A stretch of DNA of 54,285 nucleotides, from contig JAUNOF010000005.1 in NCBI GenBank assembly GCA_030537215.1, positions 1 to 54,285 on the forward strand. Direction: 5' to 3'. Position 1 is the first letter of the stretch, and the number at the start of each line of letters is the position of its first letter. The position numbers and the translations under genes were made by a program. Below, one piece after another: positions 3,720-54,285 of the stretch. A model generated the notes under the pieces. That model was not told the DNA's origin and ran no database searches. It saw only the letters and a program-made list of their open reading frames with translations. Source of the DNA: Lachnospiraceae bacterium (GTDB taxonomy: Bacteria; Bacillota; Clostridia; Lachnospirales; Lachnospiraceae).

Positions 3720-3740
3720 AATCTTCCTCCTGTGTCATAC

Positions 3741-3777
3741 AAAAAACCGAAGCTGCTGCAGAATGCTTCGGTTTTTT
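3741..3777 (-). terminator. Intrinsic terminator after the YtvI-like gene
   Basis: A 13-bp perfect stem, AAAAAACCGAAGC at 3741-3753 and its complement at 3765-3777, with an 11-nt loop. It carries A and T tracts on both sides, so it could act in both directions. On the minus strand it closes the YtvI-like gene. The mobile element next to it duplicated the last 8 bases of the stem arm (GGTTTTTT). Confidence 0.8.
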
Positions 3778-3909
3778 GTAACTGTTCAGTACCTTCACAG
3801 TTACAAGCAAAAATCCATTAAAATCGCCTGCGGCGATGGGATTTTTGCCTGCTATTCCACGTTTTCTTACGGTCAGCGCAGCAAATGCGCAGACCTACTG
3901 AACAGTTAC
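3778..3909 (+). mobile_element. MITE copy A, IS66-type ends
   Basis: A 132-bp non-coding element bounded by perfect 14-bp inverted repeats, GTAACTGTTCAGTA at 3778-3791 and its complement at 3896-3909. It is flanked by the direct 8-bp repeat GGTTTTTT (3770-3777 and 3910-3917), a perfect target duplication. Inside are a hairpin GCAAAAATCC/GGATTTTTGC (about 3806-3847) enclosing a small TCGCC-TGC-GGCGA hairpin, and a GC-rich arm near 3871-3895. It has landed in the terminator of the YtvI-like gene; duplication of the target preserved the terminator stem. GTAA ends with 8-bp duplications are the established hallmark of the IS66 family. No transposase is encoded, so it must have been moved in trans (inference). 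Confidence 0.88.
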
Positions 3910-3924
3910 GGTTTTTTACTATTT

Positions 3925-7627: not shown

Positions 7628-7654
7628 GTAACTGTTCAATACCTTCCCAGTTAC
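7628..7654 (+). mobile_element. MITE copy B, 27-bp collapsed remnant
   Basis: A 27-bp stretch matching the left end of the 132-159-bp elements with two substitutions: GTAACTGTTCAATACC, then four bases, then CAGTTAC. Flanks TACGTTTC (7620-7627) and TACATTTC (7655-7662) match at 7 of 8 positions, as an aged target duplication would. In the full copies the same CAGTTAC occurs both internally (27 bp from the left end) and at the right terminus, so deletion between these two direct copies would leave this remnant. It lies between the rpsA stop and its terminator. Confidence 0.72.
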
Positions 7655-16395: not shown

Positions 16396-16566
16396 GGGGT
16401 CAAAAGGTATTTGACCCCTATGATACACGGATTTCTCCGCACTTCGTGCTCCCGAAATCCTAAAAACATTCGAAATCCGCCCTAATCGGGCTACTTTCTC
16501 ATGTTTTTGCGGGTCTCAAAGTCATGTATAGACATGCAAGCATGTCATACATGACCTTTTAACCCT
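16396..16566. repeat. Palindromic intergenic element, possible second MITE/REP type
   Basis: A 171-bp non-coding block made almost entirely of hairpins. The edges are imperfect inverted repeats, GGGGTCAAAAGGT (16396-16408) and the complement of AGGGTTAAAAGGT (16554-16566), 11 of 13 matching. Inside are GGGGTCAAA/TTTGACCCC (16396-16418), GGATTTC/GAAATCC enclosing GCAC/GTGC (16429-16460), AAAAACAT/ATGTTTTT enclosing GCCC/GGGC (about 16462-16508), and a 16-bp stem GTCATGTAT-GACATGC with one bulge (16521-16555). I see no clean target duplication. It sits between two genes of the catabolic operon and would be transcribed with them. Confidence 0.65.
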
Positions 16567-16575
16567 GGTATCATA

Positions 16576-37784: not shown

Positions 37785-37823
37785 AGCTTAATCCTCCGTT
37801 TATATTTGTATAAAACAATCTGT

Positions 37824-37956
37824 GTAACTGTTCAGTAGGTCTGCGCGCTTGCTGCGCTGACCGTAAAACAACTTGGGCTAGAAGGCAAAAATCCCATCGG
37901 CGAAGCCGATTTGAAATGGATTTTTGCTCGTAACTGTGAGGGTACTGAACAGTTAC
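37824..37956 (-). mobile_element. MITE copy C, upstream of purL
   Basis: A 133-bp copy in the opposite orientation to copies A and D. The 14-bp ends GTAACTGTTCAGTA and complement are perfect. Direct repeats CAATCTGT (37816-37823 and 37957-37964) are a perfect 8-bp target duplication. The central hairpin reads ATCGGC-TTC-GCCGAT, where copies A and D read ATCGCC-TGC-GGCGAT, so one base pair has changed on both sides and pairing is kept. It ends about 40 bp before the purL ATG, so it is either in the purL leader or between the gene and its promoter. Confidence 0.9.
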
Positions 37957-37970
37957 CAATCTGTGTAACA

Positions 37971-40786: not shown

Positions 40787-40817
40787 GATTCGTAACCTTT
40801 TATCCTTTCCATTTTTC

Positions 40818-40976
40818 GTAACTGTTCAGTACCTTCACAGTTACGAGCAAAAATCCATTGAAAATCGCCTGCGGCGATGGGATTTTTGCCTGCTATTCCA
40901 CGTTTTCTTACGGTCAGCGCAGCAAGTACCCTCGCTTCGCTGGGGCAGACCCTGCGCAGACCTACTGAACAGTTAC
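40818..40976 (+). mobile_element. MITE copy D, in the sigma-like gene leader
   Basis: A 159-bp copy with perfect 14-bp ends and perfect 8-bp target duplications CATTTTTC (40810-40817 and 40977-40984). It is nearly identical to copy A except for a 27-bp extension in the right-hand GC-rich arm (about 40925-40955), containing CTCGCTTCGCTGGGG and a second GCAGACC. The predicted transcription start of the sigma-like gene lies in the right-hand target repeat, so the element makes up nearly all of that mRNA's 5' leader. Confidence 0.9.
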
Positions 40977-40986
40977 CATTTTTCTT

Positions 40987-54114: not shown

Positions 54115-54285
54115 ATTCTTCCTGCTGCATTCCTGCTTTCTTGTACTGTTTTATACTTTGCACTCTCGCAATCGCCGCCGGTATTCGTAATCCGGGCTAT
54201 TGCCCTGCTTACTCATACCCGCTTGCCCGGCCGATATCCGTGAATTCGCTCATGCAAGCATGGCTCATTCACGGCTGCCGTCCGG
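54115..54285. other. Palindromic right end of the window
   Basis: This 171-bp stretch upstream of the helicase contains no gene. It holds CCGGGC (54192-54197)/GCCCGG (54225-54230) and a strong hairpin CCGTGAAT (54238-54245)/ATTCACGG (54267-54274) with inner CATGC-AA-GCATG. The inner piece resembles the loop of the element at 16521-16555. I could not find a convincing helicase promoter here. Confidence 0.5.

What the first reader, a model, noticed from the sequence alone, without database searches (positions are those of the whole stretch)
3778..3909. Family of small IS66-type MITEs with perfect target duplications
Seen directly: copies at 3778-3909, 37824-37956 and 40818-40976 have identical 14-bp inverted ends (GTAACTGTTCAGTA) and each is flanked by a different perfect 8-bp direct repeat (GGTTTTTT, CAATCTGT, CATTTTTC). 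They carry no gene. Ends starting GTAA and 8-bp duplications are established for IS66. So these are probably miniature elements moved in trans by an IS66 transposase encoded elsewhere. Three independent duplications make chance very unlikely.
Basis: partly seen in the sequence, partly recalled or inferred. Interest (0 to 1): 0.78.

Follow-up and report, generated by a model that had tools for sequence, protein, structure and literature searches.

The report
Gut-bacterium miniature transposons and their scars
These are short, gene-free pieces of jumping DNA, about 130 to 160 letters long, that spread through the genomes of gut bacteria of the family Lachnospiraceae, most likely moved by the enzyme of a larger relative of the IS66 type; many have since shrunk to a 27-letter scar, so the finding is real but of a known kind.

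Summary
Copies at 3778-3909 (132 bp), 37824-37956 (133 bp) and 40818-40976 (159 bp) have exact 14-bp inverted ends, and each is flanked by a perfect, different 8-bp duplication. A fourth, missed copy is a 27-bp remnant at 7628-7654. The draft genome holds 104 exact ends (control 0). I catalogued 31 long copies, 25 with a perfect duplication. A sister genome (about 95% identical) has the uninterrupted target, with a single 8-mer, for window copy 1, several other long copies and at least five 27-bp copies. The IS66 reading is supported and narrowed to the ISBst12 group: elements with these ends in other genera carry a single transposase of about 480 aa that passes the IS66 curated cut-offs, and the literature gives ISBst12-group ISDge4 ends as GTAACTGCTCAGCA. 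No such transposase was found in this 89%-complete genome. New here: about half of the well-dated copies are exactly 27-28 bp, the product expected from deletion between the element's longest direct repeat (ACAGTTAC), and two internal hairpins show compensatory changes across the family. Verdict: a new, apparently undescribed family of a known kind (a MITE) that decays by nearly precise excision.

The parts
3778..3909 (+). MITE copy 1, 132 bp, between two genes that both read on the - strand
   Evidence: exact 14-bp ends, 8/8 TSD; empty site with one GGTTTTTT in sister genome G007
3770..3777 (.). target duplication GGTTTTTT, left copy
3910..3917 (.). target duplication GGTTTTTT, right copy
7628..7654 (+).
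   Evidence: 3 mismatches to the 27-bp consensus, 7/8 TSD TACGTTTC/TACATTTC
37824..37956 (-). MITE copy 2, 133 bp, intergenic
   Evidence: exact 14-bp ends, 8/8 TSD CAATCTGT at 37816-37823 and 37957-37964
40818..40976 (+). MITE copy 3, 159-bp subtype with an extra 26-27 bp in the second hairpin, intergenic
   Evidence: exact 14-bp ends, 8/8 TSD CATTTTTC at 40810-40817 and 40977-40984

Best explanation
[quoted passage not shown] SHOWN: 14-bp inverted ends, 8-bp target duplications, single-8-mer empty sites in a sister genome, no coding capacity, the same family in many Lachnospiraceae, and the same ends on IS66-type elements that encode a transposase. INFERRED: an ISBst12-type transposase supplied by an autonomous element (now lost, unassembled, or present only at times through gene transfer) binds the ends and inserts copies, mostly at AT-rich intergenic sites, with an 8-bp staggered cut. 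INFERRED with good support: inserted long copies then often lose their middle by deletion between short direct repeats, helped by the hairpins that bring the repeats together. The favoured repeat, ACAGTTAC (positions 20-27 and the right terminus), leaves a 27-bp scar inside an intact target duplication, like the 'nearly precise excision' described for Tn10 (general knowledge); in the 159-bp subtype AGTACCCTC leaves a 62-bp scar.
For: Copies, ends and TSDs. Empty sites: copy 1; other long copies such as L016, L040, L050, L131, L135, L137; 27-bp copies such as L001, L002, L005, L007, L097. Partner IS: L315 (G024), 1824 bp, ends GTAACTGTTCAG and GTATCTGTTCAG, one 487-aa ORF, PF03050 118.3 bits against cut-off 23.1, NF033517 222.6 against 180. 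L313 (G350): 481-aa homologue, ends GTAACTATTCAG, TSD ATAATTTT 8/8. G036: an IS whose two ends begin GTAACTGTTCAGTACCC, the same 17 bp as many MITE copies, over a transposase C-terminus with matches in IS66 transposases. Literature: ISBst12-group ISDge4 has a single ORF, ends GTAACTGCTCAGCA/GTGACTACTCAGCA and an 8-bp repeat (PMC12898284). Deletion model: the longest direct repeats in the 133- and 159-bp forms predict products of exactly 27 and 62 bp, the two commonest short sizes; the 27-28-bp copies have fewer perfect TSDs than the long ones (13/30 against 25/31, Fisher p 0.004), so they look older.
Against: No IS66 transposase was found in this genome, though it is 89% complete in 257 contigs and multi-copy IS elements are often lost from such assemblies. 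No autonomous IS with these exact 14-bp ends was recovered with both ends and its gene on one contig; L315 and L313 differ at up to 1 position in the outer 12 bp of each end, and L315 has no matching TSD. No site was found where one genome has the long form and the other the 27-bp form, so the deletion step is inferred from sizes and not observed.
Confidence: 0.86

Rival explanations
1. The 27-bp unit is itself mobile: the transposase uses the internal ACAGTTAC as a right end and moves GTAACTGTTCAGTACCCTCACAGTTAC directly.
For: Many 27-bp copies have a perfect 8-bp TSD and clean empty sites in the sister genome; one genome of another genus (G029) has a single exact end and it is a 27-bp copy with TSD GGGTTTTT.
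Against: Only 8 bp of the presumed right end match the terminal repeat, and two end-binding sites of 14-17 bp would overlap within 27 bp (inference). The size is what deletion between the element's longest direct repeat predicts, and other deletion sizes (62, 52, 28, 21 bp) also occur with TSDs. TSDs of 27-bp copies are more decayed.
Confidence: 0.1
2. The family is moved by an unrelated transposase that also makes 8-bp duplications (for example IS256, ISL3 or IS6 type), and the shared ends with IS66 are convergent.
For: No IS66 transposase in this genome, and no autonomous copy in the genus was shown to carry these ends.
Against: In G036 the MITE's outer 17 bp sit at both ends of an IS66-type element, and G024, G335 and G350 have near-identical ends next to IS66 transposases. 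ISDge4 of the ISBst12 group has a GTAACTGCTCAGCA end and an 8-bp repeat.
Confidence: 0.04
3. The elements are kept as functional RNA or DNA structures (for example transcript-stabilising or terminating hairpins in untranslated regions) and not mainly as mobile parasites.
For: Covariation in both internal hairpins across 43 copies: 77 double-changed cells against 12 in shuffles and at most 21 in slid controls; strong folds on both strands; of 56 classified copies, only 1 lies inside an ORF and most lie between co-directional genes.
Against: Copies are mostly not shared even with a 95% identical sister, as expected of recent insertions. Stem-loop MITEs are the rule (PMC10969869). Palindrome-correcting mutation can also produce paired changes, and related copies inflate the counts.
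Confidence: 0.12

Closest known systems
ISBst12 group of the IS66 family (for example ISDge4 of Deinococcus geothermalis, PMC12898284)
   Same: Ends GTAACTGCTCAGCA against GTAACTGTTCAGTA; 8-bp direct repeat; partner elements here have one long ORF and pass the IS66 Pfam and NCBIfam cut-offs.
   Different: The window elements are 132-159 bp and carry no gene; only the outer 14-17 bp are shared with the IS ends.
Canonical IS66
   Same: Ends begin GTAA and the TSD is 8 bp (PMC11946415).
   Different: Canonical ends are 20-30 bp beginning GTAAGCG and the family typically has more than one ORF; here the ends are GTAACTG and the partner has a single ORF.
Prokaryotic MITEs with stem-loops (for example QMITE2, MITEAba12, BOX and RUP-type repeats)
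   Same: Short, intergenic, inverted ends, TSD, strong fold (PMC10969869).
   Different: Different ends and partner transposase; about half of the well-dated copies here are a uniform 27-28-bp scar.
Nearly precise excision of Tn10/Tn5 (from general knowledge)
   Same: Deletion between short direct repeats inside the element leaves a fixed remnant between intact target duplications.
   Different: Here inferred from natural copies of a MITE, with a 27-bp remnant; not assayed.

Membership tests
MITE | short (under about 500 bp), no coding capacity | tested here: met
   132, 133, 159 bp; no credible gene inside
MITE | terminal inverted repeats | tested here: met
   14/14 identical in all three window copies
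MITE | target-site duplication and empty sites | tested here: met
   25/31 long copies 8/8; single-8-mer empty sites in the sister genome
MITE | multiple dispersed copies | tested here: met
   104 exact ends in the genome; many Lachnospiraceae genera
MITE | mobilised in trans by an autonomous relative | not testable with these tools
   partner candidates found in other genera, none in this genome; movement was not assayed
IS66 family, ISBst12 group | 8-bp target duplication | tested here: met
   the IS in L313 also has 8/8
IS66 family, ISBst12 group | ends GTAACTG(C/T)TCAG(C/T)A | tested here: met
   GTAACTGTTCAGTA against ISDge4 GTAACTGCTCAGCA and IS ends in G036, G024, G335, G350
IS66 family, ISBst12 group | single DDE transposase ORF of the IS66 type in the autonomous element | tested here: met
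   487-aa ORF: PF03050 118.3 bits, NF033517 222.6 bits, lone long ORF within L315:2065-3888
IS66 family, ISBst12 group | autonomous copy in the same genome | tested here: not met
   none found; assembly 89% complete. Not required of a MITE
Canonical IS66 (GTAAGCG ends) | ends begin GTAAGCG | tested here: not met
   ends are GTAACTG; criterion from PMC11946415

The most novel reading that the evidence does not exclude
The 27-bp palindromic unit GTAACTGTTCAGTACCCTCACAGTTAC is itself transposed by the IS66-type enzyme, which would make it one of the smallest mobile DNA units known.
Probability: 0.1. Interest if true: 0.75.

Novelty: new member of a known kind. Interest (0 to 1): 0.4.

Why it matters
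It gives an abundant gut-bacterial family a well-defined, insertionally polymorphic repeat that can serve as a strain marker, ties it to the little-studied ISBst12 group, and gives a natural, countable record of deletion between short direct repeats: the ratio of 27-bp to long copies could be used to estimate how fast MITEs decay. The hairpin covariation makes it testable whether structure is selected or produced by palindrome-correcting mutation.

Tried and rejected
Chance: rejected. An ordinary non-mobile repeat such as REP or BOX: rejected, because of TSDs and empty sites. A known Rfam RNA: no MITE copy matched at gathering threshold. Plasmid or phage origin: no plasmid match, only three unannotated faecal 'bacteriophage' contigs at 86-87%, no match of the 17-bp pattern in viral contigs. 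IS66 elements of the same genus (G002, G003): GTAACTG ends were not found on the stretches held. The 34-aa C-terminal fragment from G036 alone gave no Pfam match, so the family call rests on the full-length homologue. Literature: no paper with the end sequence as a repeat was found; the 15 hits look like primer or unrelated sequence by their titles, and no IS66-MITE paper for Lachnospiraceae was found; most subscription journals are not held, and ISfinder and TnCentral could not be searched. Sites where one genome has the long form and the sister the 27-bp form: sought at 25 long-copy sites, none found. Window copies 2 and 3: sister sites too diverged for a clean empty-site call.

Full report
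CHECK OF THE OBSERVATION. The three copies, their 14-bp inverted ends and their three different perfect 8-bp duplications are present at the stated coordinates. With up to 2 mismatches the end occurs 7 times in the window, against 0.16 expected. In the whole draft genome (3.3 Mb, 257 contigs, 89% complete) the exact 14-mer occurs 104 times and its reversed control 0 times.

THE FAMILY IN THIS GENOME. The catalogue holds 31 long copies in two main sizes, 132-134 bp and 159-160 bp (the second has an extra 26-27 bp in the second hairpin). 25 have an 8/8 duplication and 4 have 7/8. It also holds 30 copies of 27-28 bp, 13 with 8/8 and 8 with 7/8 (one of these, L088, read from the same listing by eye), plus a few of 62, 52 and 21 bp. 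The flanking 8-mers differ from copy to copy and are mostly AT-rich. Of 56 copies whose surroundings could be classified with a crude ORF caller, 1 lay inside an ORF.

EMPTY SITES. In the sister genome G007 (about 95% identical here) the site of window copy 1 is uninterrupted and has a single GGTTTTTT: the difference is exactly 132 + 8 bp. The same holds for other long copies in either direction (L016, L040, L050, L131, L135, L137) and, with a difference of 27 + 8 bp, for L001, L002, L005, L007 and L097. One 27-bp copy (L024) is shared by both genomes. Copies 2 and 3 of the window lie in intergenic stretches that have diverged too far for a clean call.

PARTNER TRANSPOSASE. G000 has no detectable IS66 transposase. 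In another genus of the family, contigs of G036 break inside a multi-copy element whose two ends begin GTAACTGTTCAGTACCC and whose inside reads as the C-terminus of a transposase; distant matches of that fragment on two plasmids are annotated as IS66 family transposase. A full-length homologue in G024 is 487 aa; it passes the curated cut-offs of PF03050 and of NCBIfam NF033517, IS66 family transposase. It is the lone long transposase ORF between ends GTAACTGTTCAG and GTATCTGTTCAG of a 1824-bp element. In G350 a 481-aa homologue lies between GTAACTATTCAG ends with an 8/8 duplication ATAATTTT; other ORFs are nested in that element. The literature gives ends GTAACTGCTCAGCA and GTGACTACTCAGCA, a single ORF and an 8-bp repeat for ISDge4, an ISBst12-group IS66 element seen to transpose (PMC12898284), whereas canonical IS66 ends begin GTAAGCG (PMC11946415). 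The window family is therefore best filed as a MITE of the ISBst12 group.

DISTRIBUTION. Paired copies of 129-143 bp there mostly have perfect 8-bp duplications. Among 299 genomes of the family, 9 had the 17-mer.

STRUCTURE. Aligned long copies (43 sequences, 81% mean column identity) share two internal hairpins. For the structure I named (written by inspecting this alignment), 93.5% of cells are paired, 20 pairs show a change on both sides and 77 cells are double changes, against 12 in shuffles and at most 21 in slid controls. Relatedness of copies and palindrome-correcting mutation can both inflate such counts, so this shows that pairing is maintained, not why.

THE 27-BP FORM. The longest direct repeat in the 133-bp form is ACAGTTAC, whose deletion leaves exactly 27 bp; in a 159-bp copy the longest is AGTACCCTC, whose deletion leaves exactly 62 bp. 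These are the two commonest short sizes. A 28-bp copy (L079) carries the extra C seen in the 134- and 160-bp copies, and in G003, where most long copies read CACCGTTAC, a 27-bp copy does too. The short copies have fewer perfect duplications than the long ones (13/30 against 25/31, p 0.004), so they look older. I infer insertion of a long copy followed by nearly precise excision. Direct movement of the 27-bp unit is not excluded, and no site was found with the long form in one genome and the short form in the other.

VERDICT. Observation confirmed; IS66 interpretation supported and narrowed to ISBst12; a new, apparently undescribed family of a known kind with an instructive decay pathway.

Noticed in passing
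window 16421-16573 (-) and 54134-54285 (-): Two matches to the Rfam family Clostridiales-1 RNA (RF01699; 131.4 and 74.5 bits, the second cut by the contig end), catalogued by Rfam as an sRNA.
   Followed up: no
window 3739-3777: Copy 1 is inserted at the T-run end of a terminator-like hairpin (AAAAAACCGAAGC...GCTTCGGTTTTTT); its TSD is the end of that hairpin.
   Followed up: partly
G008 (same genus), for example L359-L368: This relative has dozens of related copies at about 80% identity but not one exact GTAACTGTTCAGTA end, so its family has diverged ends; these were fetched but not analysed.
   Followed up: no
L162, L170, L186, L232 (G136 and Blautia sp. Marseille-P3087): A distinct 142-143-bp subfamily keeps the left 27 bp but has a different inner sequence that also looks like hairpins.
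   Followed up: partly
L286:1860-2075: Two MITE copies nested or in tandem, sharing ends (216 bp in all).
   Followed up: no
L101, beside the 27-bp copy: A separate palindromic repeat GTAACAGTTCAGATACCTTGAACTGTTAC lies next to the 27-bp copy, perhaps another MITE family with related ends.
   Followed up: no
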